From contig NC_092317.1 of assembly GCF_036785885.1 (NCBI RefSeq), positions 374,501 through 438,500 of the forward strand: a stretch of 64,000 bases of DNA, written 5' to 3'. This document shows positions 27,500 to 63,613 of the stretch, in pieces. The stretch is from Coffea arabica. Taxonomy: Eukaryota; Streptophyta; Magnoliopsida; Gentianales; Rubiaceae. The translations under genes were made by a program, and so were the position numbers. Under the pieces are notes generated by a model, which saw only the letters and a list, made by a program, of their open reading frames with translations, was not told the origin of the DNA and made no database searches. Each line of letters begins with the position of its first letter. Position 1 is the first letter of the stretch.

Positions 27500-28576
27500 G
27501 GTTTGTTTGGATTGAGCATTATTTCTCCAATTTTATTTGCTTACATCATCGTTACAATTTTTAATATACCTTTTTATCTTCTCAATTACCTTTTTATCTC
27601 ATATACATCACATCATACAAAGTACTGCAGTAGAAATAGGGAAATTTGCCAAATTGGTCCCTAACATTTACCAAAAACACTTTTTTAGTCCCTAACATAT
27701 AAAATCAGCCAAAATTGACCTTCACATTTAAATTGTGATCCAATTTGGTCCTAATGCTCGTTTTTACTCATTTCTCCGGCTAAAAATAGCACGCCCCTCT
27801 CACGTGGTCATATTTTCATGGGCAAAATTGGAAAACAAAAGCTTTCTTCTTTCTTCTTGTCCCCTGTTTCTTCTTCTCCATCGCGACCGAGAGCCCTCAT
27901 CACCGCCGCCGCATCCTCCGCCCCTCCAACCTCGCTTGTCCGCCGCCTCTCTCTACTGTCGCGCGATCTCTGCTCCGCTGCCCTGCGCACTGCCCTCGTC
28001 TCTCTCTTTAGTCGACCGCATCCTTCCACCAGCTCACCCGCGACCCCAGCGCACGCCGCCCGCTGCTCAGCGCGTCGCCACTGCGCGGCTCTCTTTCATC
28101 CTCTGCCTGCCCCGACGCTGCAGCCCACATCCACGAGAAGCAGCCGCCGCCGCTGCTCGACGCCACTGGCGCGCGTCGCATACCTCACCTCACCTTACTT
28201 CACTCCCTCTTTTGATCACCTCCAAATATGCTTCTGTTCAGGTGAACTCAGTCACCGTTGTGGTGAACCTGTCCTTAGAGAATCGAAGCAAGATAAAGAT
28301 CGTGAGGTCAGGAATCGTCCCCAGTGGATCTGGGATTTGTGTTTTCCAATTTTGCCCTTGAAAATATGGCCACGTGAGAGAGGCGTGCTATTTTTAGCCG
28401 GAGAAAGGAGCAAAAATGAGCATTAGGACCAAATTGGATCACAATTTAAATGTGAAGGACAATTTTGGCTGATTTTATATGTTAGAAACTAAAAAAGTGT
28501 TTTTGGTAAATGTTAGGGATCAATTTGGCAAATTTCCCGTAGAAATATCCCAAATAACTTACCATCCAAACAAACC
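27500..28576. mobile_element. Small MITE, copy C, split by a MULE
   Basis: Ends are GGTTTGTTTGGAT at 27500-27512 and its exact complement at 28564-28576. Without the insertion the element is about 168 bp. Its interior (CCTTTTTATCTCATATACAT, CACATCATACAAAGT) matches copies A and B near 3.1-3.5 kb. The 900-bp MULE interrupts it, so this MITE is the older insertion. Confidence 0.6.
27630..28547. mobile_element. Mutator-like non-autonomous element with GC-rich core (Pack-MULE-like)
   Basis: The element is exactly 27639-28538 (900 bp). A perfect 9-bp target duplication, GTAGAAATA, lies at 27630-27638 and 28539-28547. The arms are about 200 bp and begin GGGAAATTTGCCAAATTG; by eye they differ at about ten positions, so around 95% identical. 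Between them (about 27840-28340) is a strongly GC-rich segment, unlike the AT-rich arms and surroundings. It is open in more than one frame across most of its length (208 codons at 27735-28361; 202 codons at 27818-28426). Long TIRs, a 9-bp duplication and foreign-composition core are the defining picture of a Pack-MULE. The captured source gene was not recognised and there is no transposase. Confidence 0.8.
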
Positions 28577-37539: not shown

Positions 37540-40500
37540 ATGCTCTTGTCCTCCTCTGTCCCTTCTTCCTCTCCTGCGTCTCACCTTACCACAGTCAATC
37601 CCTTTGGCTCCCTCTTTTCGGATGTGCTGCTGTCTCTACTTGTCATAACCCTCTCTTGCTTTGCGACTGCCACCCATGCCTCCTGCAATCGCCTGGATCG
37701 TGACTCTTTATTATCCTTTTCCACCAGCATAGCCAGCCCCTCATCTCCTTTGAATTGGACTATCTCGGTTGATTGCTGCATCTGGGAAGGCGTTCTTTGT
37801 GACAAAAGCGGTAGAGTCGCCAGTTTAAGGCTGCCATCAAGAGGGCTTGTCGGAACCATCTCTCCTTCACTGGCCAACCTCAGCAGTCTTTCTCAACTAA
37901 ACCTCTCACGCAACTTCCTTTCTGGTCCTCTCCCAAATGGATTCTTCGTGTCCCTCAATCACCTGCAGGCGATTGATTTGAGCTACAACCGACTCTCCGG
38001 ACAATTACCGCCTTCCGATAAGTTTCCAACAACAATCCAGCAAGTGGACTTCTCCAGCAACAAATTTAATGGAACCGTCCAATTTACATTTCTCCAGGAA
38101 GCAATAAACTTGGCAAGTTTCAATATCAGCAACAACAGCTTTTTTGGGTCCATTCCTTCATTCATCTGCAGCATTTCACCCTCCATTAGACTCCTTGATT
38201 GCTCTTTCAATCATTTCAGTGGCTCGATTCCCCAAGATGTTAAATATTGTTCAAATTTGGAGACTCTACGGGCAGGTTTCAATTCTCTCTCGGGTCCTCT
38301 TCCTCATGCTATTTATAGCGTGTTGACTCTGCAAGAGATATCTTTACCTGGAAACAAACTGAATGGATCAATTAACCAAGATATTGCCGGACTCAACAAG
38401 CTCAGGATTTTTGAACTCTATGCTAACGAGATTACAGGTACAATCCCTCCAGAAATAGGAATGCTCTCCAACCTGGAAAATCTACTCCTTCACATAAACA
38501 AACTTCATGGTACTCTGCCACCATCTGTCACAAATTGCACAAGACTCAAACTGCTCAACCTAAGAGTCAACTTACTTGTTGGTGATCTTTCCAAATTTGA
38601 TTTCTCCAAACTCACCCAACTTGTCACGATTGACTTGGGGAATAATTTTTTCAATGGTAGCCTGCCGGTAAGCCTTTTTTCGTGCAGATCATTGACAGCA
38701 GTTCGCCTGGCCACTAATCACCTGACCGGAGAGATCCCACCCCAGATACATGCACTACAATCTCTGTCTTTTCTCTCAATTTCCAATAACACACTAACCA
38801 ATGTCACAAGTGCAATCAGAATTTTGACAGGTTGCAAGAATCTCAGTACACTGATTCTGTCAAAGAATTTTTATAATGAATCGTTGCCAGGTGATGACGG
38901 TTTAGTCGATTCTGAAGGATTTCAGAATCTCCAGATCCTTGGTTTAGGTGGTTGCCAATTCTCTGGTCAAGTTCCCAGTTGGCTGACTAAGCTGCAAAAG
39001 CTTGAGGTCCTCGACTTGTCAGTTAATAACCTCACAGGCTTAGTTCCAAGTTGGCTTGGAAATCTGCCAGACCTTTTTTACTTAGATTTATCTCAGAACC
39101 TCCTCTCAGGAAACTTCCCTGTAGAACTTACTGGACTCCCAAGACTAGTGAGGCAGCAGGGTACTGATCAAGTGGATCAGAGTTACTTAGAGTTGCCAGT
39201 CTTTGTTCAGCCTGAGAATGTCTCCAGCTTACAGTACAATCAGGTGTCTAACCTCCCCCCTGCTATATACCTGAATGGGAATAACCTCAGTGGCAACATA
39301 CCCATTGAGATTGGCCAATTGAAGCGCATTCATGTCCTGGATCTCAGTCACAACAATTTTTCAGGCAGCATTCCCAACACGATATCTTATCTTACTAACT
39401 TGGAAAAGTTGGACCTTTCTGGAAACCATTTTTCTGGTGAAATTCCAGCTTCACTCGGGAACCTCCATTTTCTGTCTTCTTTCAGCGTTGCAAACAACAA
39501 TCTTCAAGGCCCAATACCCGCAGGAGGCCAGTTTGATACCTTCCCCAATGCCAGCTTTGAAGGAAATTCAGGGTTGTGTGGCCGATTTCTACGCCCTTGT
39601 AGCAATCAATCACCAACTACAAACCCCTCAGCAACAAGAAAAAGCCCAAAGAGGAAAATAATTATTGGACTCATACTTGGAATCTGTTTTGGCATTGGAT
39701 TCACTGTTTCTGTAGTGGCATTTTGGATATTTTCCAAGAGAAGGATCCTTCCTAAAGGCGATGCTGAAAAAACTGATCTGGATACACTTTCCTACAACTC
39801 TAATTCTGGACTGTCCACTGAGTTTGGAAAAGACACCAGCATAGTTGTCTTGTTTCCTGATAACACAAAGGATGTTAAGGATCTCACAGTATCAGAGTTA
39901 CTGAAAGCCACAGACAACTTCAACCAAGCAAACATTGTTGGCTGTGGGGGTTTTGGTTTGGTTTACAAAGCAACTTTGACAAATGGCACACAGCTGGCTA
40001 TTAAGAAGCTTTCAGGAGATACAGGGTTGATGGAAAGGGAATTCAAAGCAGAGGTGGAAGCATTATCAACAGCCCAGCACGAGAACCTAGTTGCTTTGCA
40101 AGGTTACTGTGTGCACGGTGGGTTTAGATTACTGATATATTCGTATATGGAGAATGGTAGTCTAGACTACTGGTTACATGAGAAGCCCGATGGAGCAGCC
40201 CAACTTGATTGGCCAACCCGACTAAAAATTGCCCAGGGTGCAAGTTGTGGCTTGGCATACATGCACCAGATATGTGAGCCACATATTGTGCATCGCGACA
40301 TAAAATCCAGTAACATCCTGCTGGATGAGAATTTTAAAGCACATGTGGCAGATTTTGGATTGTCTAGATTGATTCTTCCCTACCGAACACACGTAACCAC
40401 TGAACTGGTAGGCACCCTAGGTTACATCCCACCAGAGTATAGTCAATCATGGATAGCCACTTTGAGAGGGGATGTTTACAGTTTTGGAGTTGTCATACTT

Positions 40501-40788
40501 GAATTACTGACGGGCAAGAGGCCTATGGAGATATTCAAGCCTAAAGTGTCAAGAGAATTGGTTGGATGGGTGCAGCAAATGAGAAATGATGGGAAACAAG
40601 ATGAAATCTTTGATCCAGTACTGTGCGGCAAGGGCTTTGAAGAAGATATGCTGCAAGTGCTTGATGTTGCCTGCATGTGTGTCAACCAAAATCCTTTCAA
40701 GCGGCCAACCATTACAGAAGTAGTTGATTGGCTCCATGACATAGGGTCCAAGAGACAGGCACCAAAAGAAGGGCAATTGTATAAATGA
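37540..40788 (+). CDS. PSY1R: Tyrosine-sulfated glycopeptide receptor kinase (PSY1R-like LRR-RLK), complete
   Basis: An intronless CDS of 1083 codons (1082 aa). PSY1R-type receptors sit in the plasma membrane, respond to the sulfated peptide PSY1 and promote cell expansion; they are close to phytosulfokine receptors. A signal peptide precedes the first Cys (LLSLLVITLSCFATATHASC). The LRR cap pair is in DCCIWEGVLC. A long run of plant LRRs (LDLSxNxLSGxIP type) is interrupted by the island (about residues 540-570, including VQPENVSSLQYNQ), as in PSKR/PSY1R. The transmembrane segment is IIIGLILGICFGIGFTV (about 704-728). The kinase (about 798-1066) has GCGGFGLVYK, AIKKL, HRDIKSSNIL, DFGLSR and GTLGYIPPEY. 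An in-frame ATG at 37456 would add 28 His-rich residues ahead of the signal and is less likely. From codon 393 onward (38716) the gene lies in the 9.4-kb duplicated unit. Confidence 0.95.
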   Translation: MLLSSSVPSSSPASHLTTVNPFGSLFSDVLLSLLVITLSCFATATHASCNRLDRDSLLSFSTSIASPSSPLNWTISVDCCIWEGVLCDKSGRVASLRLPSRGLVGTISPSLANLSSLSQLNLSRNFLSGPLPNGFFVSLNHLQAIDLSYNRLSGQLPPSDKFPTTIQQVDFSSNKFNGTVQFTFLQEAINLASFNISNNSFFGSIPSFICSISPSIRLLDCSFNHFSGSIPQDVKYCSNLETLRAGFNSLSGPLPHAIYSVLTLQEISLPGNKLNGSINQDIAGLNKLRIFELYANEITGTIPPEIGMLSNLENLLLHINKLHGTLPPSVTNCTRLKLLNLRVNLLVGDLSKFDFSKLTQLVTIDLGNNFFNGSLPVSLFSCRSLTAVRLATNHLTGEIPPQIHALQSLSFLSISNNTLTNVTSAIRILTGCKNLSTLILSKNFYNESLPGDDGLVDSEGFQNLQILGLGGCQFSGQVPSWLTKLQKLEVLDLSVNNLTGLVPSWLGNLPDLFYLDLSQNLLSGNFPVELTGLPRLVRQQGTDQVDQSYLELPVFVQPENVSSLQYNQVSNLPPAIYLNGNNLSGNIPIEIGQLKRIHVLDLSHNNFSGSIPNTISYLTNLEKLDLSGNHFSGEIPASLGNLHFLSSFSVANNNLQGPIPAGGQFDTFPNASFEGNSGLCGRFLRPCSNQSPTTNPSATRKSPKRKIIIGLILGICFGIGFTVSVVAFWIFSKRRILPKGDAEKTDLDTLSYNSNSGLSTEFGKDTSIVVLFPDNTKDVKDLTVSELLKATDNFNQANIVGCGGFGLVYKATLTNGTQLAIKKLSGDTGLMEREFKAEVEALSTAQHENLVALQGYCVHGGFRLLIYSYMENGSLDYWLHEKPDGAAQLDWPTRLKIAQGASCGLAYMHQICEPHIVHRDIKSSNILLDENFKAHVADFGLSRLILPYRTHVTTELVGTLGYIPPEYSQSWIATLRGDVYSFGVVILELLTGKRPMEIFKPKVSRELVGWVQQMRNDGKQDEIFDPVLCGKGFEEDMLQVLDVACMCVNQNPFKRPTITEVVDWLHDIGSKRQAPKEGQLYK

Positions 40789-41872
40789 ATAGAGAAACTC
40801 CAGAATTTGTTGTTAATATAAAACGTCAATGGCAGTTTTTTTCCCTTTTTTTTTTTTACCCCCTTCTGAAACGAGAAAAATATACGTAATGTTCAAGTGG
40901 AGGATTGTATAAAGCTAAATGTTGCTACCAGTTAGTCAAGCATACACTTCTAATATTGTCAACTAGAAGGAATTGATCGCTGTAGTTTCATGCAGGAGTG
41001 TCTTCTTGAAGTCTAAAAGGACCGATGAGTTCCTCTCTTTAACTATGGTTTTGGCGAGTAATGACGAAAATGAGTAAGGTTTGTCATAGTTTGGCTTACA
41101 GCTACAAGATGACTTCTGGAAACTTGAATTGATTATTCAGATTCTCGCATTTAAGCTAACAAGCAAAAGAACAACAGCCGCAACCTTCTGCTGCTCCAAC
41201 GAAAAATCAAGAGCTAATTGTCGTCTGTACAAAAGTTTGTGAAGCAGCAGGGGCCGGGACAAGTAGAATGTGGTTGAAAGGGTTTTGATGATTTAGCACG
41301 AGGTATAGACTCTCAAAATTAAAAAAAAAAAAAACCAGAAAAATGTTAAGATAGACAAAGCACCATAATTAACCAAAAAGGAAAAAAAAAAAGGTCTATT
41401 TGTTCGTGTGTGTGAATTGACAGGGAAGAAAGTAAAGAAAAGACTCATCTCATTCTCATTCCGTATTCGTACTTGTTAAAATGCTGCTGCATTTTGGTTT
41501 GGGCATTTTCACCGGTACCTGGCGGCCTATGGCGGCGGATTTCAATCCACAAACAGCTGCTCATCCCACCCAGTAACTATTACTAAGTAATACTACTAAC
41601 AAATGCCTGCGGCTTGAGGTGGCGGCGGCGCTAACTCCTCCGTTTTTCTCCCGATTTATGGCGCCAATCCTACAGTATGAGAAAGTTGAAACCTTGCCCC
41701 AAGGCCTCGTTTGGACGGAAATACTTGGAAAGAAAATACTGACACAGTTACCAACTTTTAATTGGAGGGGAAATAAACGGTTAAAATGCTTCTTTTTTTT
41801 TTTTTTTCAAATGTTAAAGAGATTGAGGAGGAAAAATGAAAAAACCAAGGGAAACCAACCAACCATTTTGGG

Positions 41873-42380
41873 AGTCTTCATCAATTTAGTCCTTTATCTA
41901 TTAAATTTATCAATTTATTCTCTCATCTTTATGAAATTAAAAAAAATTCTCTAATAGAAAATTAAATAATTCTATTGAAATTGATCAGCAGATGGACATT
42001 TGAAAATGACCATTTTAGTCTCGAATCTTCAAGTCTCTTCAATTTGGTCTCTTATATATCATTGTCTATTAATTTATATATCATTACCTATTGATTTTGT
42101 TTTGTGGATTTGAGGATTTAAATTGATAGATGGTGACATCTAAATTGGAGACAACCTCGAAGGCAAAGGGATGAGTTGGTCATTTTAAAAGGTTCACATG
42201 CCCAATGACCAATTTTGTTAGAATTTTCTAATTTTTCATTACAGGTCCCAGATTGACATTATTTTATAAAGTTGATGGAATAAAATGGTAAGATTGATAA
42301 ATAATAAACTGGTAGGATTGATTGATAAAGAACTAAATTGGCTAAAATTCTAAACACAGGGGGCCCAAAATGATCATTTT
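41873..42380. mobile_element. Long-TIR MITE, in duplication copy 1
   Basis: Arms form an imperfect inverted repeat: left CCATTTTGGGAGTC...CAATTTAGTCCTTTATC; right, reverse-complemented, TCATTTTGGGCCCCC...CAATTTAGTTCTTTATC. Inner blocks around 42015 and 42180 (GACCATTTTAGTC, GGTCATTTTAAAAGG) pair again. It is non-coding and of Mutator-type appearance. Ends are approximate and no target duplication was resolved. It is repeated at 51266-51773. Confidence 0.5.
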
Positions 42381-42661
42381 CTCAAAGAAACATGGCATAG
42401 GAAAAAAATAACAATCAAAGGTTTCGTGATACCAAGTTAGCAAGAAATATGCGTTGAGTAACAAGTGTCAAGTAGCAGTGTAATATGCAATAAGTATTAA
42501 CCATATTCCACTTATTTCTTCAAATCCCATTCAAGTTTGATCTTCTTTTAAAGTTTTAGTGCGTAGGTTTATTTTTTCCCTGGTTTCCCTTTTATTGCTT
42601 TATTTTATTCAGAAAATATGTCATCAATAAAATTTGCTTACAGTTCTAAAGGCAACTAAAT

Positions 42662-42960
42662 TCAACAATAGGTGGGAGAGAGATGAGTTGAATGATAAGC
42701 GGGGAAGGAAGTGTAAGTGAGAGGTTCTGAATTCGAAATCTCCTATTTATACTTTAAAAAAAAAAATCCAACAACAACTAGAGGAAATTTGAGTTGGGTT
42801 AGGTTAAGTAGTAAGACGAGGGATCTCAAGTTTTAGACCTCAGTTACAGTATAAAAAAAAATTCCAACAATAGTTAGAGGAGGGATAGGTTGGGTTGGGC
42901 GGCAGAGTGGGAGAAATTGTAAATAAGAGGTCTTGAATTCAAGATATTCAACTTATCAAA
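42662..42960 (+). mobile_element. Three tandem SINE-like units, in duplication copy 1
   Basis: Three diverged units of about 100 bp begin with CAACAAT/CAACAAC at 42663, 42769 and 42865 and are separated by A-rich tails. Each has a GAGTTGGGTTRGGY-like block and a segment such as GAGGTTCTGAATTCGAAATC or GAGGTCTTGAATTCAAGATA that resembles an RNA polymerase III B box. The last unit runs into an AT microsatellite. This looks like tRNA-derived SINE heads inserted one into the tail of another, or a tandem array. Repeated at 52055-52353. Confidence 0.45.
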
Positions 42961-42962
42961 AG

Positions 42963-42964
<2 letters not shown>

Positions 42965-43004
<40 letters not shown>
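42965..43004. repeat. AT microsatellite, copy 1
   Basis: Twenty uninterrupted AT repeats. The same array with the same length lies at 52358-52397 in copy 2, an informative point because such arrays mutate quickly. Confidence 0.9.
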
Positions 43005-43009
<5 letters not shown>

Positions 43010-44409
43010 GATAGTTTTTTATTTTCACAACAAATAATAACAAACCGAAAACCTTTATGATGAAACCCATGTCGTCTCTTTCCAATTTTTTATACTAAAT
43101 GTGTGAAATTATTCCACTGTAGAAAAAAAGAAAAAAAAGAAAAAAGGGTGTTCGAAAGGTTACTGTCGGTATTCCATTTCTTTCGCACAATGCACTACTT
43201 GATTAAAGAGACAACTAGGTGGAATTACTCTTTGCAGAGTCACGGGAATTTGGTCGAACTCAAACACCGAAGTATCGTTGGAATCTTTTAAATCTACTGT
43301 CAATAATAACAAGTGACTGAACAAAAACTAGTATAATTTTACATGGATCGAAATTTACTCTACTGCAACAAAATATTCACTCTTGCAAAAAAAAAAAAAA
43401 AAAAAAAAAAAGGCAAACCTTCTCTTCAAGCTGTAAGTGTCTGTGGAAGCAACCATATATAACCGAGGTAAAAGTTGTGAACAATTCCACTCTTGAAGGG
43501 CTCATGCATTTTAATACGTTACCTACTAGTATTAGAGGTGTAGACAATAATATGTTGCAATTGATTGCATTCAAACTTGCATGATCCAAGTTTCAAGTTT
43601 GCTTAATCATTTTGATGATTTCATTCAAATTCAGTTTGTTTATTTTTCGAGCAAAAGTAAAATTAATGTGTATCAAACCGATTCCTTAGATATAAATTTC
43701 AAGTTTTAATACTTAAGTTTGAATGAAGTAGGAAATGTTAGTAGTAGTATAAATTAAGGGCATGGATGTGTTTGGCAGCTAGGTTCCAAGGCAAGTAATG
43801 GATTTCAATTTCAGCCATACTCTTCTTTTTTTTTTTTTTCCAAGATCAATTGGAATGAGTTTCATAGATGCTTCAATTGGTAAACTGCTAAAGAGTAAGG
43901 TTTAATATTTTGATATTACTAAAAATTTATCTATCGTTGCAAAGTTATTTTTATCACACTCGTTGTATTATTTATTATTCCTTAATTTATTTATCATACA
44001 CACAACGAGAGTGATTATGCAATATGAACGAAACGGCAGTTATGTTACACTTACTTGATGAATCCACTCAGACATTGAAGATGTTTTTTTTTTATCAGTC
44101 GAGCATTTTAAATGCTACTAGCGGTAGGTAGTTTCGTATGGTTTTCGTTTTTGGTGCGTTAAATAATGGGAAGGGGGTAAAAGTTGGGAGTAATCCGAAG
44201 TCAAACAACGACCCAACAAATAAATAACTAATATGGAAGGCAAAATAGAATATTTGTGCCTTTCTTTGGAAGGGAAAAAAAAGAAGAAAAGGAATAGTGT
44301 GCTGCTTCTTCTTCTTCCAAGTTCCAAGTTCCAAGTAGTATCAGCATCAGCAGTGGAGTTAAACAAACTACGAAGTCCGAGTGGGAGTGAGCAAAAGATC
44401 GTCGGGGAA

Positions 44410-47400
44410 ATGGGAAAGGAGAGGAGGTTGACGGTGTTTTTGAGCATAATTTGGGCTCTGACCATTCTGTATGGTGAGATGTTTGCATATTGGGTGCCCT
44501 CTCTTTGGACTTGTTCTTGGCCTCATCATCTTCGCCACTCTTCTTCCTCCTCGGTAATTAGTAATAACCTCACCCACCCAACATAAAGAAAATTACTTCT
44601 TGAAACGTTAAACTCATTTAACTTAGCTCTGAAAAAACGATGACCCACAAGTTATTTCTAGTGGCTGTTTTCGGATTTTACTTAATCTGTTGGATCTTCT
44701 GTTCCAGCTATTGATAAAAAGAAAGAAAAAAAAAATCGAAGTTTTCACTTGCCTTGATTCGTTTTCTCTTTTCTTTATTTTGGTTAATATGCACTTCGTT
44801 CGTTAATCTGATGGTAGTTTTTAGTTTATTTCATCTCTTTCTTTCCATTTCTGATGCGGCTCTTTTTTTGCTAGGGATATTGCCCAAATTACTTTATGGA
44901 TTAATGACGTTGAATCTAATCGGCATATAAGATGCCAAAAAAAAAAAGGATAGAATTTTGATTTCATAGGTGCCGCCTAGAAATATGTATAAGTTGCGCT
45001 ACGGTCATCATCTTTTCGACCAAGGAAGGGAGCGGAAATGCTGAATCAATTACCAAAATCTGACTCATACAACTAACTCCATTGATGCATCCGAACATTT
45101 CATTAGGTTTAGCATTATTAAGAGGAGGAGGATACAGGTTGATAAAAACATTCCCGGTTAGGATCTTCCTGGTTACCATCATTTCCTGCAATTAGCTAAG
45201 TATTTCTTTAGTCATTACTGCATGCTCTGAACCATTGTCACTCTTTTAGGCAATGCAAAAAGGCGGAAACATTTTAACACAAGGTCACTCCCCTCGTTGT
45301 GCATTGATGATTTACACAAAAGCATTACATTGTGGTAGTTGTTGCAAACTCGTAAAGACTCATTAGCGCAAAAAAGTTTGTTTTTCAATTGTTAAATTTA
45401 CAAAATTTTCTCGTTTCTTCTTATCTGTTATGCTTCAGTATTTTTGCAACCAAATACATGCAGATTATTGAAACCCAAACTTTTTTTTTTTTTTGGGTGG
45501 CGTGTGTCTCTCTGCCTGATTGCAGGTGAAGAGACTCAATGATTCTGGTGATTATGTCAAAATTGCCGTTCTGGCTGATCCTCAGGTAAATCTCCTCGGA
45601 AGTAGTTCCATAATTGTGTCCAAACATAAATACAGATGTATGAAAATACATGCCTTGGTGAGATATTTCAATGATTCTGCAAAGCAACTGCCAATTGAGT
45701 ACTTATTTTCAACAGCTCATGGATAGGACCTCCCTTCATCTTTCCCCAAAGTCACTGGCTCTCGAGATTGCTCAGTTCTACACAGACTTGTTCATGCGCA
45801 GGGCATTCCTGTTGTCTGTCTTACGTTTCAAACCTGATGTGCTTCTCTTTTTTGGTGATTACTTTGATGGGGGCCCTATTCTGTCTGACAATGAGTAAGC
45901 CATTTAATTTTATAGGTTTTGTATGAAAGTTTACACAGGCATTTATGCGGTTGAATCTCTATTAAATGTGAAAATGCAGCTAGACTGTTGCAACACACTC
46001 AATTTTGATACTGTTTATCTGAACTTTGTCTTCACAACGACGCATCCCATTGTTGAACAGATGGCAGGAATCCTTGAGCCGCCTTAAACATATCTTTGAT
46101 CTGAATGTGCTCCAGAAAACTAAAAATATGAAAGTGTATTTCCTATCCGGAAATCATGACATTGGATATGAGGCTCTTTACTCCAAAACGCCAGAGGTAT
46201 GTTAATGCATTATTCTCTAAATCTCATACTACTTGTCAGAATAAATCATTTTCGTTTTCCAGGTCGCTGGATTAAATTTAGATGCTTAACTTGTTCTGGT
46301 GATATATCTGATGCTACTTTCTTGGTAACGAGTGATCACAAGACAATTCGAGCTCAGAACCCTAATAGCTCGTCCATGAATGTTCATCTACATAGGCATA
46401 TAAGAATTTGTTTTATTTATCTGTGTCAGTTTCTTCTTGAAGCAGTATCCATCTATGGGGTTTTCTGAACAAGTACTGATTAATCACTAATAATGCAATT
46501 TCTGACACTTCAATAATGCAACCCTCCCTCTGATCATCTCTCTGGCTTGTTATCTCTGCATCTACTTGTCTGCAGGTTATCAGGCGTTATGAGGAAGAAT
46601 TTGGAGCACGAAACTATAAGTTTACACTTGGAAAAGTGGATTTTATTGCTATTGACTCACAGACATTAGATGGTAAAAGCCAGTGAACACGTATCTCCAT
46701 ATCATCTGTAATAGTATAGTATCACTTTACTGCAAAAATTTCTGGAACTCTAACAGGTGCCCAGATTATAATTTGGAGATACCCAAAAGGTAGATAATTT
46801 ACTGTATTTCATAGTGATTGCCGTGATCTCCTTGGACAACTAGTTAATCATTTTTCCTTGTATATTCATTCTTTGCCAGGCAAATCAAGGTGCAATTTTA
46901 TGTTTTATGCAGTCCAAGTTTACATGAAAACTACAAGGATAAAACAAGTTTCTTATCTCATTAATTTGTTACTTTTCCCCCTTCATCTGTTTGACATGAA
47001 AGTGGCTCGTTTCTTTAAACTTCCTAGATATCTGTGCACTTGTTGTATTTCTGCTGGTAATAACAAATGTAGTGTGTGTGATGCTGGTGTATTACAGATG
47101 ATATCTCTGACTAACTGAAGCTTATAACTTGGACTTTATACTCTGAAGTGTGTGTAAAGCTGCTGGATACTTTAACTGGCTGTGTATTTGTACTGCTCAT
47201 GACGACCTAGTCTTGTTGATAAAAGTCAAAAATCTTTTTCTACTAACTAATCAAGACTTGGTTGACATGTTAGACCTTAAGTTGCAAGTAGATTGACGCT
47301 GTCACTTGCTGGACCACATAAGGATCTGTATGGTTGCTAGAATAATGGTATCTTTTCTTGGTCAATCAAACTCAGTAGGACTGCTTTCCTAAGTTAGCTT

Positions 47401-48108
47401 TGTTTTGCATGTCTCTTTATGCAATCATGTGACTTTGCTGAACTACACAAGGATATCTGCAGTAGCTTCCTTCTCATTTGTATATTAGAATTATTTTCTT
47501 TGCTTAATCATCTATAGATAAATTTACCTTGTAAGTTGGCGATACTAAGAGTTGATGGCAAGATTTTTGTCCACAGGGAATTCACAGGGAAATGTAACCT
47601 CTGCCACCTGGAATTTTATTGCAAATGTCTCTCAGGGTAATTGGCAGCGACTTCTAAGAAAATCTATCATGTTAGATAATTACAATACGGTATGAAGTCC
47701 ATGACATGCCTTATGCATCCAGATTCCAGTTCAATGACAAGGGTTCTATTGACTCATATCCCATTGTACCGGCCAGATTGGACTCCATGCGGTCCATATC
47801 GTTCTTCACCCATTATCAATCAGGTTAATATTTTTCTCTCTGCATTGAGTTAAATGGCAATCTTAGAAACATGTTGGTGCAAGTTATCACCTTGCATACA
47901 TTTTGTTTAGCTAAAAATTACTATCTCTTACTCTGTTCCAGAGGATTTTGCGTGCCCCAGAAAATCAACAAATATTGTAAGCATCTTATTGTGTTCTGCT
48001 TCTTTGACTGTATGTGGTGGATTACAGTCCTTCATGGAATGGATGTTGGGGTATGACATGATACTTTTCCTCTGATCTATTAATACAGGTATCAAAATTA
48101 TGTCACTG
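44410..48108 (+). pseudogene. 3'-truncated metallophosphoesterase gene, duplication copy 1
   Basis: Exons 44410-44553, 45526-45585, 45716-45894, 46061-46196, 46576-46672, 47577-47636, 47723-47823, 47942-47976 and the start of exon 9 (48089-48108) are identical to the intact copy 9,393 bases downstream. At the duplication junction exon 9 runs out of frame into PSY1R-like sequence: ...NYVTE-SPDRRDPTPD..., stopping after some 20 codons. The product would have the first metal-binding motifs (LADPQ, GDYFDGG, GNHD, THIPLY) but lose GHDHD and both C-terminal membrane segments. If the duplication is an assembly artefact, this is simply the 5' half of the one real gene. Confidence 0.85.
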
Positions 48109-50181
48109 AATCACCTGACCGGAGAGATCCCACCCCAGATACATGCACTACAATCTCTGTCTTTTCTCTCAATTTCCAATAACACACTAACCAATGTCAC
48201 AAGTGCAATCAGAATTTTGACAGGTTGCAAGAATCTCAGTACACTGATTCTGTCAAAGAATTTTTATAATGAATCGTTGCCAGGTGATGACGGTTTAGTC
48301 GATTCTGAAGGATTTCAGAATCTCCAGATCCTTGGTTTAGGTGGTTGCCAATTCTCTGGTCAAGTTCCCAGTTGGCTGACTAAGCTGCAAAAGCTTGAGG
48401 TCCTCGACTTGTCAGTTAATAACCTCACAGGCTTAGTTCCAAGTTGGCTTGGAAATCTGCCAGACCTTTTTTACTTAGATTTATCTCAGAACCTCCTCTC
48501 AGGAAACTTCCCTGTAGAACTTACTGGACTCCCAAGACTAGTGAGGCAGCAGGGTACTGATCAAGTGGATCAGAGTTACTTAGAGTTGCCAGTCTTTGTT
48601 CAGCCTGAGAATGTCTCCAGCTTACAGTACAATCAGGTGTCTAACCTCCCCCCTGCTATATACCTGAATGGGAATAACCTCAGTGGCAACATACCCATTG
48701 AGATTGGCCAATTGAAGCGCATTCATGTCCTGGATCTCAGTCACAACAATTTTTCAGGCAGCATTCCCAACACGATATCTTATCTTACTAACTTGGAAAA
48801 GTTGGACCTTTCTGGAAACCATTTTTCTGGTGAAATTCCAGCTTCACTCGGGAACCTCCATTTTCTGTCTTCTTTCAGCGTTGCAAACAACAATCTTCAA
48901 GGCCCAATACCCGCAGGAGGCCAGTTTGATACCTTCCCCAATGCCAGCTTTGAAGGAAATTCAGGGTTGTGTGGCCGATTTCTACGCCCTTGTAGCAATC
49001 AATCACCAACTACAAACCCCTCAGCAACAAGAAAAAGCCCAAAGAGGAAAATAATTATTGGACTCATACTTGGAATCTGTTTTGGCATTGGATTCACTGT
49101 TTCTGTAGTGGCATTTTGGATATTTTCCAAGAGAAGGATCCTTCCTAAAGGCGATGCTGAAAAAACTGATCTGGATACACTTTCCTACAACTCTAATTCT
49201 GGACTGTCCACTGAGTTTGGAAAAGACACCAGCATAGTTGTCTTGTTTCCTGATAACACAAAGGATGTTAAGGATCTCACAGTATCAGAGTTACTGAAAG
49301 CCACAGACAACTTCAACCAAGCAAACATTGTTGGCTGTGGGGGTTTTGGTTTGGTTTACAAAGCAACTTTGACAAATGGCACACAGCTGGCTATTAAGAA
49401 GCTTTCAGGAGATACAGGGTTGATGGAAAGGGAATTCAAAGCAGAGGTGGAAGCATTATCAACAGCCCAGCACGAGAACCTAGTTGCTTTGCAAGGTTAC
49501 TGTGTGCACGGTGGGTTTAGATTACTGATATATTCGTATATGGAGAATGGTAGTCTAGACTACTGGTTACATGAGAAGCCCGATGGAGCAGCCCAACTTG
49601 ATTGGCCAACCCGACTAAAAATTGCCCAGGGTGCAAGTTGTGGCTTGGCATACATGCACCAGATATGTGAGCCACATATTGTGCATCGCGACATAAAATC
49701 CAGTAACATCCTGCTGGATGAGAATTTTAAAGCACATGTGGCAGATTTTGGATTGTCTAGATTGATTCTTCCCTACCGAACACACGTAACCACTGAACTG
49801 GTAGGCACCCTAGGTTACATCCCACCAGAGTATAGTCAATCATGGATAGCCACTTTGAGAGGGGATGTTTACAGTTTTGGAGTTGTCATACTTGAATTAC
49901 TGACGGGCAAGAGGCCTATGGAGATATTCAAGCCTAAAGTGTCAAGAGAATTGGTTGGATGGGTGCAGCAAATGAGAAATGATGGGAAACAAGATGAAAT
50001 CTTTGATCCAGTACTGTGCGGCAAGGGCTTTGAAGAAGATATGCTGCAAGTGCTTGATGTTGCCTGCATGTGTGTCAACCAAAATCCTTTCAAGCGGCCA
50101 ACCATTACAGAAGTAGTTGATTGGCTCCATGACATAGGGTCCAAGAGACAGGCACCAAAAGAAGGGCAATTGTATAAATGA
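48100..50181 (+). pseudogene. 5'-truncated PSY1R-like receptor kinase, duplication copy 2
   Basis: From 48109 the sequence equals codons 393-1082 of the upstream receptor kinase gene. An ATG contributed by the phosphoesterase exon (48100-48102) happens to be in frame, giving a 693-codon frame starting MSLNHLTGEIPPQ. It keeps the distal LRRs, island, transmembrane segment and whole kinase, but has no signal peptide, LRR cap or proximal LRRs, and its upstream sequence is phosphoesterase intron and exon rather than a promoter. It would not make a normal surface receptor. Confidence 0.9.
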
Positions 50182-51265
50182 ATAGAGAAACTCCAGAATT
50201 TGTTGTTAATATAAAACGTCAATGGCAGTTTTTTTCCCTTTTTTTTTTTTACCCCCTTCTGAAACGAGAAAAATATACGTAATGTTCAAGTGGAGGATTG
50301 TATAAAGCTAAATGTTGCTACCAGTTAGTCAAGCATACACTTCTAATATTGTCAACTAGAAGGAATTGATCGCTGTAGTTTCATGCAGGAGTGTCTTCTT
50401 GAAGTCTAAAAGGACCGATGAGTTCCTCTCTTTAACTATGGTTTTGGCGAGTAATGACGAAAATGAGTAAGGTTTGTCATAGTTTGGCTTACAGCTACAA
50501 GATGACTTCTGGAAACTTGAATTGATTATTCAGATTCTCGCATTTAAGCTAACAAGCAAAAGAACAACAGCCGCAACCTTCTGCTGCTCCAACGAAAAAT
50601 CAAGAGCTAATTGTCGTCTGTACAAAAGTTTGTGAAGCAGCAGGGGCCGGGACAAGTAGAATGTGGTTGAAAGGGTTTTGATGATTTAGCACGAGGTATA
50701 GACTCTCAAAATTAAAAAAAAAAAAAACCAGAAAAATGTTAAGATAGACAAAGCACCATAATTAACCAAAAAGGAAAAAAAAAAAGGTCTATTTGTTCGT
50801 GTGTGTGAATTGACAGGGAAGAAAGTAAAGAAAAGACTCATCTCATTCTCATTCCGTATTCGTACTTGTTAAAATGCTGCTGCATTTTGGTTTGGGCATT
50901 TTCACCGGTACCTGGCGGCCTATGGCGGCGGATTTCAATCCACAAACAGCTGCTCATCCCACCCAGTAACTATTACTAAGTAATACTACTAACAAATGCC
51001 TGCGGCTTGAGGTGGCGGCGGCGCTAACTCCTCCGTTTTTCTCCCGATTTATGGCGCCAATCCTACAGTATGAGAAAGTTGAAACCTTGCCCCAAGGCCT
51101 CGTTTGGACGGAAATACTTGGAAAGAAAATACTGACACAGTTACCAACTTTTAATTGGAGGGGAAATAAACGGTTAAAATGCTTCTTTTTTTTTTTTTTT
51201 CAAATGTTAAAGAGATTGAGGAGGAAAAATGAAAAAACCAAGGGAAACCAACCAACCATTTTGGG

Positions 51266-51773
51266 AGTCTTCATCAATTTAGTCCTTTATCTATTAAATT
51301 TATCAATTTATTCTCTCATCTTTATGAAATTAAAAAAAATTCTCTAATAGAAAATTAAATAATTCTATTGAAATTGATCAGCAGATGGACATTTGAAAAT
51401 GACCATTTTAGTCTCGAATCTTCAAGTCTCTTCAATTTGGTCTCTTATATATCATTGTCTATTAATTTATATATCATTACCTATTGATTTTGTTTTGTGG
51501 ATTTGAGGATTTAAATTGATAGATGGTGACATCTAAATTGGAGACAACCTCGAAGGCAAAGGGATGAGTTGGTCATTTTAAAAGGTTCACATGCCCAATG
51601 ACCAATTTTGTTAGAATTTTCTAATTTTTCATTACAGGTCCCAGATTGACATTATTTTATAAAGTTGATGGAATAAAATGGTAAGATTGATAAATAATAA
51701 ACTGGTAGGATTGATTGATAAAGAACTAAATTGGCTAAAATTCTAAACACAGGGGGCCCAAAATGATCATTTT
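51266..51773. mobile_element. Long-TIR MITE, in duplication copy 2
   Basis: Exact counterpart of the element at 41873-42380, carried along by the 9.4-kb duplication rather than an independent insertion. Confidence 0.5.
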
Positions 51774-52054
51774 CTCAAAGAAACATGGCATAGGAAAAAA
51801 ATAACAATCAAAGGTTTCGTGATACCAAGTTAGCAAGAAATATGCGTTGAGTAACAAGTGTCAAGTAGCAGTGTAATATGCAATAAGTATTAACCATATT
51901 CCACTTATTTCTTCAAATCCCATTCAAGTTTGATCTTCTTTTAAAGTTTTAGTGCGTAGGTTTATTTTTTCCCTGGTTTCCCTTTTATTGCTTTATTTTA
52001 TTCAGAAAATATGTCATCAATAAAATTTGCTTACAGTTCTAAAGGCAACTAAAT

Positions 52055-52353
52055 TCAACAATAGGTGGGAGAGAGATGAGTTGAATGATAAGCGGGGAAG
52101 GAAGTGTAAGTGAGAGGTTCTGAATTCGAAATCTCCTATTTATACTTTAAAAAAAAAAATCCAACAACAACTAGAGGAAATTTGAGTTGGGTTAGGTTAA
52201 GTAGTAAGACGAGGGATCTCAAGTTTTAGACCTCAGTTACAGTATAAAAAAAAATTCCAACAATAGTTAGAGGAGGGATAGGTTGGGTTGGGCGGCAGAG
52301 TGGGAGAAATTGTAAATAAGAGGTCTTGAATTCAAGATATTCAACTTATCAAA
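52055..52353 (+). mobile_element. Three tandem SINE-like units, in duplication copy 2
   Basis: Exact counterpart of the units at 42662-42960; same order, A-rich spacers and terminal AT microsatellite. Confidence 0.45.
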
Positions 52354-52355
52354 AG

Positions 52356-52402
<47 letters not shown>

Positions 52403-53802
52403 GATAGTTTTTTATTTTCACAACAAATAATAACAAACCGAAAACCTTTATGATGAAACCCATGTCGTCTCTTTCCAATTTTTTATACTAAATGTGTGAA
52501 ATTATTCCACTGTAGAAAAAAAGAAAAAAAAGAAAAAAGGGTGTTCGAAAGGTTACTGTCGGTATTCCATTTCTTTCGCACAATGCACTACTTGATTAAA
52601 GAGACAACTAGGTGGAATTACTCTTTGCAGAGTCACGGGAATTTGGTCGAACTCAAACACCGAAGTATCGTTGGAATCTTTTAAATCTACTGTCAATAAT
52701 AACAAGTGACTGAACAAAAACTAGTATAATTTTACATGGATCGAAATTTACTCTACTGCAACAAAATATTCACTCTTGCAAAAAAAAAAAAAAAAAAAAA
52801 AAAAGGCAAACCTTCTCTTCAAGCTGTAAGTGTCTGTGGAAGCAACCATATATAACCGAGGTAAAAGTTGTGAACAATTCCACTCTTGAAGGGCTCATGC
52901 ATTTTAATACGTTACCTACTAGTATTAGAGGTGTAGACAATAATATGTTGCAATTGATTGCATTCAAACTTGCATGATCCAAGTTTCAAGTTTGCTTAAT
53001 CATTTTGATGATTTCATTCAAATTCAGTTTGTTTATTTTTCGAGCAAAAGTAAAATTAATGTGTATCAAACCGATTCCTTAGATATAAATTTCAAGTTTT
53101 AATACTTAAGTTTGAATGAAGTAGGAAATGTTAGTAGTAGTATAAATTAAGGGCATGGATGTGTTTGGCAGCTAGGTTCCAAGGCAAGTAATGGATTTCA
53201 ATTTCAGCCATACTCTTCTTTTTTTTTTTTTTCCAAGATCAATTGGAATGAGTTTCATAGATGCTTCAATTGGTAAACTGCTAAAGAGTAAGGTTTAATA
53301 TTTTGATATTACTAAAAATTTATCTATCGTTGCAAAGTTATTTTTATCACACTCGTTGTATTATTTATTATTCCTTAATTTATTTATCATACACACAACG
53401 AGAGTGATTATGCAATATGAACGAAACGGCAGTTATGTTACACTTACTTGATGAATCCACTCAGACATTGAAGATGTTTTTTTTTTATCAGTCGAGCATT
53501 TTAAATGCTACTAGCGGTAGGTAGTTTCGTATGGTTTTCGTTTTTGGTGCGTTAAATAATGGGAAGGGGGTAAAAGTTGGGAGTAATCCGAAGTCAAACA
53601 ACGACCCAACAAATAAATAACTAATATGGAAGGCAAAATAGAATATTTGTGCCTTTCTTTGGAAGGGAAAAAAAAGAAGAAAAGGAATAGTGTGCTGCTT
53701 CTTCTTCTTCCAAGTTCCAAGTTCCAAGTAGTATCAGCATCAGCAGTGGAGTTAAACAAACTACGAAGTCCGAGTGGGAGTGAGCAAAAGATCGTCGGGG
53801 AA

Positions 53803-56800
53803 ATGGGAAAGGAGAGGAGGTTGACGGTGTTTTTGAGCATAATTTGGGCTCTGACCATTCTGTATGGTGAGATGTTTGCATATTGGGTGCCCTCTCTTTG
53901 GACTTGTTCTTGGCCTCATCATCTTCGCCACTCTTCTTCCTCCTCGGTAATTAGTAATAACCTCACCCACCCAACATAAAGAAAATTACTTCTTGAAACG
54001 TTAAACTCATTTAACTTAGCTCTGAAAAAACGATGACCCACAAGTTATTTCTAGTGGCTGTTTTCGGATTTTACTTAATCTGTTGGATCTTCTGTTCCAG
54101 CTATTGATAAAAAGAAAGAAAAAAAAAATCGAAGTTTTCACTTGCCTTGATTCGTTTTCTCTTTTCTTTATTTTGGTTAATATGCACTTCGTTCGTTAAT
54201 CTGATGGTAGTTTTTAGTTTATTTCATCTCTTTCTTTCCATTTCTGATGCGGCTCTTTTTTTGCTAGGGATATTGCCCAAATTACTTTATGGATTAATGA
54301 CGTTGAATCTAATCGGCATATAAGATGCCAAAAAAAAAAAGGATAGAATTTTGATTTCATAGGTGCCGCCTAGAAATATGTATAAGTTGCGCTACGGTCA
54401 TCATCTTTTCGACCAAGGAAGGGAGCGGAAATGCTGAATCAATTACCAAAATCTGACTCATACAACTAACTCCATTGATGCATCCGAACATTTCATTAGG
54501 TTTAGCATTATTAAGAGGAGGAGGATACAGGTTGATAAAAACATTCCCGGTTAGGATCTTCCTGGTTACCATCATTTCCTGCAATTAGCTAAGTATTTCT
54601 TTAGTCATTACTGCATGCTCTGAACCATTGTCACTCTTTTAGGCAATGCAAAAAGGCGGAAACATTTTAACACAAGGTCACTCCCCTCGTTGTGCATTGA
54701 TGATTTACACAAAAGCATTACATTGTGGTAGTTGTTGCAAACTCGTAAAGACTCATTAGCGCAAAAAAGTTTGTTTTTCAATTGTTAAATTTACAAAATT
54801 TTCTCGTTTCTTCTTATCTGTTATGCTTCAGTATTTTTGCAACCAAATACATGCAGATTATTGAAACCCAAACTTTTTTTTTTTTTTGGGTGGCGTGTGT
54901 CTCTCTGCCTGATTGCAGGTGAAGAGACTCAATGATTCTGGTGATTATGTCAAAATTGCCGTTCTGGCTGATCCTCAGGTAAATCTCCTCGGAAGTAGTT
55001 CCATAATTGTGTCCAAACATAAATACAGATGTATGAAAATACATGCCTTGGTGAGATATTTCAATGATTCTGCAAAGCAACTGCCAATTGAGTACTTATT
55101 TTCAACAGCTCATGGATAGGACCTCCCTTCATCTTTCCCCAAAGTCACTGGCTCTCGAGATTGCTCAGTTCTACACAGACTTGTTCATGCGCAGGGCATT
55201 CCTGTTGTCTGTCTTACGTTTCAAACCTGATGTGCTTCTCTTTTTTGGTGATTACTTTGATGGGGGCCCTATTCTGTCTGACAATGAGTAAGCCATTTAA
55301 TTTTATAGGTTTTGTATGAAAGTTTACACAGGCATTTATGCGGTTGAATCTCTATTAAATGTGAAAATGCAGCTAGACTGTTGCAACACACTCAATTTTG
55401 ATACTGTTTATCTGAACTTTGTCTTCACAACGACGCATCCCATTGTTGAACAGATGGCAGGAATCCTTGAGCCGCCTTAAACATATCTTTGATCTGAATG
55501 TGCTCCAGAAAACTAAAAATATGAAAGTGTATTTCCTATCCGGAAATCATGACATTGGATATGAGGCTCTTTACTCCAAAACGCCAGAGGTATGTTAATG
55601 CATTATTCTCTAAATCTCATACTACTTGTCAGAATAAATCATTTTCGTTTTCCAGGTCGCTGGATTAAATTTAGATGCTTAACTTGTTCTGGTGATATAT
55701 CTGATGCTACTTTCTTGGTAACGAGTGATCACAAGACAATTCGAGCTCAGAACCCTAATAGCTCGTCCATGAATGTTCATCTACATAGGCATATAAGAAT
55801 TTGTTTTATTTATCTGTGTCAGTTTCTTCTTGAAGCAGTATCCATCTATGGGGTTTTCTGAACAAGTACTGATTAATCACTAATAATGCAATTTCTGACA
55901 CTTCAATAATGCAACCCTCCCTCTGATCATCTCTCTGGCTTGTTATCTCTGCATCTACTTGTCTGCAGGTTATCAGGCGTTATGAGGAAGAATTTGGAGC
56001 ACGAAACTATAAGTTTACACTTGGAAAAGTGGATTTTATTGCTATTGACTCACAGACATTAGATGGTAAAAGCCAGTGAACACGTATCTCCATATCATCT
56101 GTAATAGTATAGTATCACTTTACTGCAAAAATTTCTGGAACTCTAACAGGTGCCCAGATTATAATTTGGAGATACCCAAAAGGTAGATAATTTACTGTAT
56201 TTCATAGTGATTGCCGTGATCTCCTTGGACAACTAGTTAATCATTTTTCCTTGTATATTCATTCTTTGCCAGGCAAATCAAGGTGCAATTTTATGTTTTA
56301 TGCAGTCCAAGTTTACATGAAAACTACAAGGATAAAACAAGTTTCTTATCTCATTAATTTGTTACTTTTCCCCCTTCATCTGTTTGACATGAAAGTGGCT
56401 CGTTTCTTTAAACTTCCTAGATATCTGTGCACTTGTTGTATTTCTGCTGGTAATAACAAATGTAGTGTGTGTGATGCTGGTGTATTACAGATGATATCTC
56501 TGACTAACTGAAGCTTATAACTTGGACTTTATACTCTGAAGTGTGTGTAAAGCTGCTGGATACTTTAACTGGCTGTGTATTTGTACTGCTCATGACGACC
56601 TAGTCTTGTTGATAAAAGTCAAAAATCTTTTTCTACTAACTAATCAAGACTTGGTTGACATGTTAGACCTTAAGTTGCAAGTAGATTGACGCTGTCACTT
56701 GCTGGACCACATAAGGATCTGTATGGTTGCTAGAATAATGGTATCTTTTCTTGGTCAATCAAACTCAGTAGGACTGCTTTCCTAAGTTAGCTTTGTTTTG

Positions 56801-58983
56801 CATGTCTCTTTATGCAATCATGTGACTTTGCTGAACTACACAAGGATATCTGCAGTAGCTTCCTTCTCATTTGTATATTAGAATTATTTTCTTTGCTTAA
56901 TCATCTATAGATAAATTTACCTTGTAAGTTGGCGATACTAAGAGTTGATGGCAAGATTTTTGTCCACAGGGAATTCACAGGGAAATGTAACCTCTGCCAC
57001 CTGGAATTTTATTGCAAATGTCTCTCAGGGTAATTGGCAGCGACTTCTAAGAAAATCTATCATGTTAGATAATTACAATACGGTATGAAGTCCATGACAT
57101 GCCTTATGCATCCAGATTCCAGTTCAATGACAAGGGTTCTATTGACTCATATCCCATTGTACCGGCCAGATTGGACTCCATGCGGTCCATATCGTTCTTC
57201 ACCCATTATCAATCAGGTTAATATTTTTCTCTCTGCATTGAGTTAAATGGCAATCTTAGAAACATGTTGGTGCAAGTTATCACCTTGCATACATTTTGTT
57301 TAGCTAAAAATTACTATCTCTTACTCTGTTCCAGAGGATTTTGCGTGCCCCAGAAAATCAACAAATATTGTAAGCATCTTATTGTGTTCTGCTTCTTTGA
57401 CTGTATGTGGTGGATTACAGTCCTTCATGGAATGGATGTTGGGGTATGACATGATACTTTTCCTCTGATCTATTAATACAGGTATCAAAATTATGTCACT
57501 GAGAAATCGACAAATAACTTACTGAACATGATTAGCCCAGTATGTAAACTCTTCCCTCCTTAATGATCTATCAGAGCTTTGGAAAATCAGACTTCGAAAA
57601 AACTAAGCTACTTGAGGGATTCATTCTTGGCGGTACTAATCTGCGTTTGTAAACTTCAGGCACTAATCCTTTCAGGGCATGATCATGATCAGTGCAAAGT
57701 AACCCACATCACTAAGCACGGTCCCGTGGAGGAGGTAAGCACTGCATTAACTTGGCAAGATATACTTCCAGTAACAGTGCAACTTTTGATTATTTACATC
57801 ATGCAGCATACTATAGGGACTATCAGCTGGCAGCAGGGAAACTTGTTCCCTTCTTTTATGCTGTTATCTGCTAGTAATCTCAGCTCTCCAGATGGTTTGG
57901 CTCTAGAAGATGTTGTATACGCCCATCTCTGCTTTCTACCTGTTCAAACATACATATACATATGGTAATTCATAGTTAGTTAATACTGCTGCCGTTGGCG
58001 TGTAAGTTTTTGTTGGCTTCATTCTGAAACATCATCTGATGAGAATTTCAGGTATATGGTCCTGTTCATCATGACCCTTCTCATTGTTCTCTTTTGGCCT
58101 GCAAAAGAGGAATTATTCTCCCATTATATTGGCAATTTCAAGCTATGCTTCAGGAGTCTGTTCGATGGTAGTGTGTTTGGCAGGGTAATAAAAGAGAAAA
58201 ATGAAGATGAGAACTTTGAGTACGAGATGATGTGGGATGCCGAAGGATCGATGCACCTTATCAAGAAAGCGTCAAAGTCCCCTCCTAAAAGTTCAGGTGA
58301 CAACGCTTCGGTGGAAAGGTATCATGGGGCCTAGTTGAGGTGCTACGTATTGTCAGTCTATTTCTTACTGTGGGATTATGTTTTGTTATGTTTGCATTCA
58401 GCATCTATTATATCTATGCCGGAGCATCTTTTACTCTCTTTTAGAAACTGCAAACTGGCGTATTTAAAATTTTAGACTTTTTAGTATTGCCCACTCTTGC
58501 ACTCTAGGGAATTTTGCAAATATTTCATCTAACCCCATTATTTGCCTCCCAAAATAAATTTTAACAGCTGCCCCCTTCCCTTTCATTTTCTCTACTTAAC
58601 ATTGAACTTTTCTTATATGTTCACCAAATTATGATCGAACCAAACGTTCATTTGATATTTTGATTGTGTATATTGTATGCTTGTTGTCCACTTACATCAA
58701 ATAGTAGTAGTTCAGGATTCTGCAACTTACTGCAACTGTACTTAGGGGCAATGCTGTTATGCGGGCGAAAAGACAGACTGAACAGGAAGTAGAGGTCGCC
58801 GTGGCTTGTGATGGGAATGTGGAATTTGACGCGAGGACACCAGGACCGGCTCGAATGAAAACATCCATGACAAAATTGGTGATACGGAGACTATTGCGAG
58901 GCATCCGCGTGCTTAGCTTTGTTGCTGCAATCAATGTTCCTCTCTACATGATGCTGCTATTCAAAGATTGGGTGGATAAATGA
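53803..58983 (+). CDS. Calcineurin-like metallophosphoesterase, Cdc1/PGAP5 (MPPE1) family, complete
   Basis: Thirteen exons: 53803-53946, 54919-54978, 55109-55287, 55454-55589, 55969-56065, 56970-57029, 57116-57216, 57335-57369, 57482-57539, 57660-57734, 57807-57964, 58052-58318 and 58746-58983. They give 536 codons (535 aa), with consistent phases and GT-AG introns. In yeast (Cdc1) and mammals (PGAP5) this family removes an ethanolamine phosphate from GPI anchors in the ER/Golgi. Metal-site motifs appear in order: LADPQ, GDYFDGG, SGNHD, LLTHIPLY and SGHDHDQC. The Gln in DPQ, where many phosphoesterases have His (DxH), is also found in Cdc1. An N-terminal membrane anchor (VFLSIIWALTILYGEMF) and C-terminal hydrophobic segments (YMVLFIMTLLIVLFW; LSFVAAINVPLYMMLLF) frame the domain. 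Exons 1-8 and most of exon 9 lie in duplication copy 2; the rest is single-copy. The last donor can be ignored to give an alternative end (YHGA-stop) at 58332-58334. Confidence 0.92.
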
Positions 58984-63467: not shown

Positions 63468-63613
63468 ACTCACTATCCTGCAAAACATACAGGTATTGCA
63501 TGGTTTAAAAGGTCGGCGGAGAGAGACAGAAAAGCATATTACTCACTATCCTGCAAAACATACAGGTATTGCATGGTTTAAAAGGTCGGCAGAGAGAGAC
63601 AGAAAAGCATATT
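63468..63613 (+). repeat. 73-bp tandem duplication
   Basis: The unit starting ACTCACTATCCTGCAAAACA occurs at 63468-63540 and again at 63541-63613, with one base difference seen (GGCGGAGAG versus GGCAGAGAG). No gene context. Confidence 0.9.

What the first reader, a model, noticed from the sequence alone, without database searches (positions are those of the whole stretch)
38716..57501. Exact 9,393-bp head-to-tail duplication: very recent event or uncollapsed assembly overlap
Two adjacent units show the same offset (9,393) at every landmark compared from 38.7 to 57.5 kb. The offset is unchanged across A-runs of 25, many T-runs and an AT microsatellite of 20 repeats, which should drift fastest. 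No base difference was found. Copy 2 starts mid-CDS and copy 1 ends mid-exon with no spacer or Ns, exactly what two overlapping contigs joined without collapsing would give. The alternative is a tandem duplication too young to have diverged.
Basis: partly seen in the sequence, partly recalled or inferred. Interest (0 to 1): 0.8.

Follow-up and report, generated by a model that had tools for sequence, protein, structure and literature searches.

The report
Exact 9.4-kb tandem duplication, plant chromosome
A 9,393-base stretch of a plant chromosome is written twice in a row without a single difference, while the matching chromosome carries it once; it is either a very recent natural duplication or an assembly slip, and both genes at its edges survive intact either way.

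Summary
Observation confirmed: 38716-48108 and 48109-57501 are identical at 9,393 of 9,393 bases, head to tail, no N. The window lies near one end of contig C8 of a 1.198-Gb plant assembly. Collinear contig C7 carries the locus once, unbroken at both breakpoints. So the doubled state looks derived and rests on one novel join, 48108/48109. Unit and C7 differ by 153 substitutions and 38 indels over 8,383 aligned columns: a haplotype mix-up is excluded, and a real duplication would be younger than about 2% of the C7/C8 split. The unit runs from codon 393 of a PSKR/PSY1R-like receptor kinase to mid-exon 9 of a calcineurin-like metallophosphoesterase; one intact copy of each remains. The join makes a truncated, frameshifted phosphoesterase followed by a headless kinase. 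Sequence alone cannot separate a young real duplication from an uncollapsed overlap. I lean slightly to real (0.55 against 0.38, a judgement): no gap between copies, telomere repeats at the contig starts, and a few exact young duplications expected at a published nematode rate. Ordinary in kind. The junction k-mer in raw or RNA reads would settle it.

The parts
38716..48108 (+). Copy 1 of the 9,393-bp unit
   Evidence: 0 of 9,393 mismatches to copy 2
48109..57501 (+). Copy 2 of the unit
48108..48109 (.). The only novel join (1-bp microhomology A); absent from the C7 locus and found whole once in the genome search
37540..40788 (+). Intact LRR receptor kinase CDS, PSKR/PSY1R-like, 1,082 aa; its 3' part lies in copy 1
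   Evidence: Pfam LRRNT_2, LRR and kinase domains; best PDB match phytosulfokine receptor 1; intact on C7 too
48109..50181 (+). 5'-truncated second kinase copy (codons 393 to stop), without the N-terminal region, LRR cap and first LRRs
   Evidence: identical to the tail of the intact CDS
48100..50181 (+). Open frame made by the join: an ATG from the phosphoesterase exon, in frame with the kinase remnant (693 aa)
   Evidence: translation not shown
44410..48182 (+). Phosphoesterase copy 1: exons 1-8 and the start of exon 9, then out of frame into kinase sequence, stop ending at 48182 (301 aa)
   Evidence: exon model; Metallophos profile matched only to position 170 of 191
53803..58334 (+). Intact calcineurin-like metallophosphoesterase, 12 exons, 461 aa, running from copy 2 into the right flank
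   Evidence: GT-AG exon model (with one exon end put right); PF00149 positions 3-190 of 191; same exons intact on C7
42965..43004 (+). (AT)20 microsatellite, equal in copy 2 at 52358-52397; likely the fastest internal clock; opposite a gap in the C7 alignment

Best explanation
A real, very young head-to-tail segmental duplication on one of two homologous chromosomes. One break in the kinase gene and one in the phosphoesterase gene were joined end to start without extended homology, as end joining or template switching would do (inferred). Because the duplication is tandem, the left copy keeps the kinase gene whole and the right copy keeps the phosphoesterase gene whole. The only new sequence is the join, which puts a 3'-truncated phosphoesterase unit upstream of a headless kinase. 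It is probably close to neutral, and liable to be lost again by unequal exchange (both inferred).
For: Exact head-to-tail copies and no gap or N in 84 kb of C8. C7 has the single-copy state with unbroken sequence at both breakpoints, so the event looks derived and has a single join. Edge genes are intact on both contigs. The join lacks flanking homology: the local similarity of the two breakpoints is reached by 74.5% of 2,000 random 60-base pairs. Both contigs carry telomere repeats in their first 5 kb, so the assembly is probably modern and a 9.4-kb unit should be resolvable with long reads (inference). Published rate: 14 duplicated segments in 10 C. elegans lines over an average of 432 generations (PMC3857721, passages), about 3 per 1,000 genomes per generation. 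At that rate, if none were lost, 1.5, 5.3 or 9.8 duplications still without a difference are expected per haploid genome at the three microsatellite rates (my extrapolation from nematode to plant, with this unit's length). PMC9516828 also reports a true allele-specific tandem duplication within one contig (passages).
Against: Not one difference, even in (AT)20 and A25. If duplication age were uniform since the C7/C8 split, zero differences would have probability about 0.005-0.006. No read, depth or PCR evidence. The assembly may not be free of misplaced ends: the first telomere match listed on C1 starts 56.2 kb inside the contig. The join itself carries no signature that favours biology.
Confidence: 0.55

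Rival explanations
1. Assembly artefact: one contig ended at 48108 and the next began at the copy of 38716, and their 9,393-bp exact overlap was laid end to end instead of being merged, or a gap-filling step wrote it twice (homotype false duplication).
For: Perfect identity including microsatellites; a size close to a long read (general knowledge); ends inside two unrelated exons; no sequence signature at the join beyond 1 bp; at least one oddly placed telomere match elsewhere in the assembly.
Against: No gap between the copies, whereas PMC9516828 lists gaps between copies as a mark of false duplications (passages). Assemblers normally merge exact overlaps (general knowledge). No N in 84 kb of C8 around it.
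Confidence: 0.38
2. Extrachromosomal circle: a 9,393-bp circle of the unit in the sampled tissue gave reads across 48108/48109, and the assembler opened the cycle into a second copy.
For: A circle of the unit would have exactly this join; 1-bp microhomology is compatible.
Against: Nothing here shows circular DNA; it needs high circle abundance and an assembler error as well.
Confidence: 0.04
3. Heterotype false duplication: the second copy is the other haplotype misplaced beside the first.
For: C7 and C8 are a homologous pair with differing sequence.
Against: The copies are identical to each other, while C7 differs from the unit at 153 of 8,383 aligned columns plus 38 indels, and C7 holds its own copy in place.
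Confidence: 0.01
4. An older duplication kept identical by gene conversion between the copies.
For: Gene conversion lowers divergence between duplicates (said in PMC3857721, passage).
Against: Conversion would have to erase every difference over 9.4 kb right up to the edges, including microsatellites; the copies match to the last base at both ends.
Confidence: 0.02

Closest known systems
Allele-specific tandem segmental duplication (copy-number variant)
   Same: Head-to-tail copies, one novel join, partner chromosome single-copy, edge genes kept intact once each
   Different: Zero divergence; not confirmed by reads
Homotype false duplication (PMC9516828, passages seen)
   Same: No differences between copies; arbitrary ends
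   Different: No gap between the copies; read depth unknown
PSKR/PSY1R-type LRR receptor kinase and calcineurin-like metallophosphoesterase (PF00149)
   Same: Domains of ordinary plant genes
   Different: Nothing unusual seen in the intact copies; the extra copies are truncated at the join

Membership tests
Tandem segmental duplication | Two adjacent copies in the same orientation | tested here: met
Tandem segmental duplication | Outer ends continuous with the single-copy locus; only one new join | tested here: met
   C7 matches across both outer boundaries and lacks the join
Tandem segmental duplication | Single molecules span the join from unique flank | not testable with these tools
   no reads held
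Homotype false duplication | Copies identical, no allele-specific differences | tested here: met
Homotype false duplication | Gap between the copies | tested here: not met
   no N in window or 10 kb on each side; a usual mark, not an obligatory one, so this does not exclude the class
Homotype false duplication | Read depth over the copies too low | not testable with these tools
   no reads held
Heterotype (haplotype) false duplication | Copies differ as the two haplotypes do | tested here: not met
   0 differences between copies against 153 substitutions and 38 indels to C7
Transposed element | Terminal repeats or target-site duplication at the unit ends | tested here: not met
   ends lie in two unrelated exons, 1-bp match only, no excess similarity of the breakpoints

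The most novel reading that the evidence does not exclude
The duplication is real and at most a few thousand generations old, segregating as one allele, and its join has created a live chimeric transcription unit: the phosphoesterase promoter drives an RNA ending in the kinase gene, from which the join-made ATG at 48100 could yield a 693-aa receptor kinase without the N-terminal signal region and with only the later leucine-rich repeats.
Probability: 0.08. Interest if true: 0.45.

Novelty: new member of a known kind. Interest (0 to 1): 0.27.

Why it matters
If real, it is a tandem duplication seen almost at birth, with its single-copy allele assembled beside it, so breakpoint, age and effect on the edge genes can be read directly. 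If not, it shows a false, gapless gene duplication in a seemingly modern assembly that would be counted as gain of a receptor-kinase fragment and a phosphoesterase fragment. Either way one k-mer decides.

Tried and rejected
Rejected: haplotype mix-up with C7 (copies identical, C7 differs). Mobile element (no terminal repeats or target-site duplication). Recombination between flanking repeats (breakpoint similarity no better than random pairs, 74.5% of 2,000 reach it). An in-frame fusion of phosphoesterase and kinase (the exon 9 frame meets a stop ending at 48182).

Led nowhere: Rfam and tRNA scans of the window were empty. Within the 154 kb in hand (84 kb of C8, 70 kb of C7) a self-comparison listing matches of 100 bp or more, simple repeats filtered, showed no other direct duplication; the 73-bp one is below that size. 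The whole-unit genome search listed C7 and paralogues but not the window's own copies; I take that as a limit of the tool, since one search listed them. Two of the 40 indels first counted against C7 fell outside the unit, in the end stretches of my own cut; the unit-only count is 38. Species: not identified. Hits in homologous pairs on C5/6, 7/8, 9/10, 13/14, 15/16 and 21/22, with no contig above C22 listed, suggest about 11 chromosome pairs. I considered Eucalyptus or another Myrtaceae from this (recall) but could not test it. PMC12239627 (passages) gives other assembly sizes, and the paper asked for is not held. Whether C7/C8 are haplotypes or close homoeologues is not decided; Ks is 0.012 and 0.020 in the two genes. 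Paper searches were used as listings, apart from the passages of PMC9516828, PMC3429916, PMC3399167, PMC3857721 and PMC12239627.

Full report
Observation. The two halves of 38716-57501 are identical at 9,393 of 9,393 positions; the run at this offset is 9,394 long, so the join has one base of microhomology. There is no N in the window or in the 10 kb on either side. The unit contains (AT)20, A25 and ten other mononucleotide runs of 10 or more, equal in both copies since the copies are identical. The finding is exact as stated.

Setting. The window is C8:374501-438500 of an assembly of 1,197,963,845 bases in 131 contigs. Contig C7 (52.3 Mb; C8 is 48.8 Mb) is collinear with it through the fetched region, with interruptions by indels. 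The genome search with the 401 bases around the join returned 7 places: the window's own join (whole query), the two half-matches in the window, two half-matches on C7 at 464749 and 473535 that do not adjoin, and two paralogous places on C13 and C14 at 76%. Homologous hits also pair C5/C6, C9/C10, C13/C14, C15/C16 and C21/C22, and the C13/C14 stretches are 97.7% alike over 3,147 columns. So this looks like a two-haplotype assembly, though close homoeologues are not excluded. Telomere repeats lie in the first 5 kb of both C7 and C8. The telomere pattern has 13,443 forward and 11,397 reverse matches genome-wide, of which only the first 100 or so places are listed; the first of these is 56.2 kb inside C1, so at least one end may be odd.

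The partner allele. Aligned to one unit, C7 shows 153 substitutions and 38 indel events over 8,383 aligned columns; 1,010 bases of the unit stand opposite gaps, among them the (AT)20 and A25. The alignment is poorest in the middle of the unit, where two neighbouring blocks of 500 columns have 29 and 23 substitutions against 2-13 in the other 15, so some of those may be misalignment. C7 runs unbroken across both places where the unit begins and ends. This gives three results. The single-copy state exists and is very likely ancestral. All evidence for the duplication in the assembly comes down to the one join. The second copy is not the C7 haplotype. A 511-bp insertion on C7 lies inside the unit's allele and is absent from both C8 copies.

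Genes. Left edge: an intact LRR receptor kinase, CDS 37540-40788, 1,082 aa, with LRRNT, LRR and kinase domains; best solved relative phytosulfokine receptor 1, E 6e-132. The name PSY1R-like is recall. An ATG further upstream in the same frame would lengthen it; I took the internal one by judgement. Right edge: a calcineurin-like metallophosphoesterase, 12 exons, 461 aa, 53803-58334 in copy 2 and right flank (model, one exon end put right), PF00149 at E 4.5e-11. Its likeness to PGAP5/MPPE1 is recall. Both are intact on C7 as well. In copy 1 exon 9 is cut after GA of a Glu codon. Reading on as it stands gives 301 aa with a stop ending at 48182, and the Pfam match is shortened from position 190 to 170 of 191. 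The kinase remnant in copy 2 starts at codon 393 and is open from a join-made ATG at 48100 for 693 codons. Expression is not shown.

Age if real. Zero differences bound the age at under 22,781 generations by substitutions at 7e-9 per site (rate recalled). With the (AT)20 alone it is 1,498, 6,241 or 14,979 generations at 1e-3, 2.4e-4 or 1e-4 per locus; PMC3399167 quotes 1e-3 to 1e-4 for plants and uses 2.4e-4 as the lowest reported rate (passages). Against the locus's own C7/C8 divergence it is under 1.4-1.8% of the split. If ages were uniform since the split, zero differences would have probability 0.005-0.006. That counts against a random duplication, but exactness is also what made the scanning reader pick this one.

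Real or artefact. For artefact: total identity, read-sized unit, arbitrary ends, no informative join. For real: no gap (gaps between copies are listed as a mark of false duplications in PMC9516828, passages), telomere repeats at the contig starts, and a published spontaneous rate of 14 segments in 10 nematode lines over 432 generations (PMC3857721, passages). Taken over to this genome that rate predicts 1.5 to 9.8 still-exact duplications per haploid genome, if none are lost. The same passages say that duplications are generally lost faster than they arise, so this is an upper guess. How many gapless false duplications such an assembly holds I could not measure. Breakpoint similarity is uninformative. 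I set 0.55 real, 0.38 uncollapsed overlap, the rest to circles, conversion and haplotype mix-up. These are judgements, not computed.

Shown: identity, adjacency, single join, single-copy partner, intact edge genes, frames at the join. Inferred: end joining as mechanism, near-neutrality, youth. Not testable here: reads, depth, RNA, population frequency. In kind this is ordinary: either a young copy-number variant or a known class of assembly error.

Noticed in passing
C7:450510-453192, against window 26022-26029: A 2.7-kb insertion on C7 absent from the window, with about 100-bp terminal inverted repeats (90%) and what reads as a 9-bp target-site duplication: Mutator-like by these marks (label recalled).
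   Followed up: partly
C7:about 468182-468676, against window 42127-42136: A 511-bp insertion on C7 inside the unit's allele, with short inverted ends and an 8-bp duplication, hAT-like (label recalled); absent from both C8 copies.
   Followed up: partly
window 27639-28538: Inverted repeat, arms 202 nt at 95%, 496 nt apart, within about 1.2 kb that C7 lacks; foldback-like insertion.
   Followed up: partly
window 63468-63613: A 73-bp tandem duplication with one difference, 6 kb right of the unit; the C7 alignments overlap on a single 73-bp copy there.
   Followed up: partly
G000 C1, about 56.2 kb: The first telomere match listed on C1 starts 56.2 kb inside the contig, so something seems to lie outside the telomere: possible misjoin or interstitial array.
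   Followed up: no
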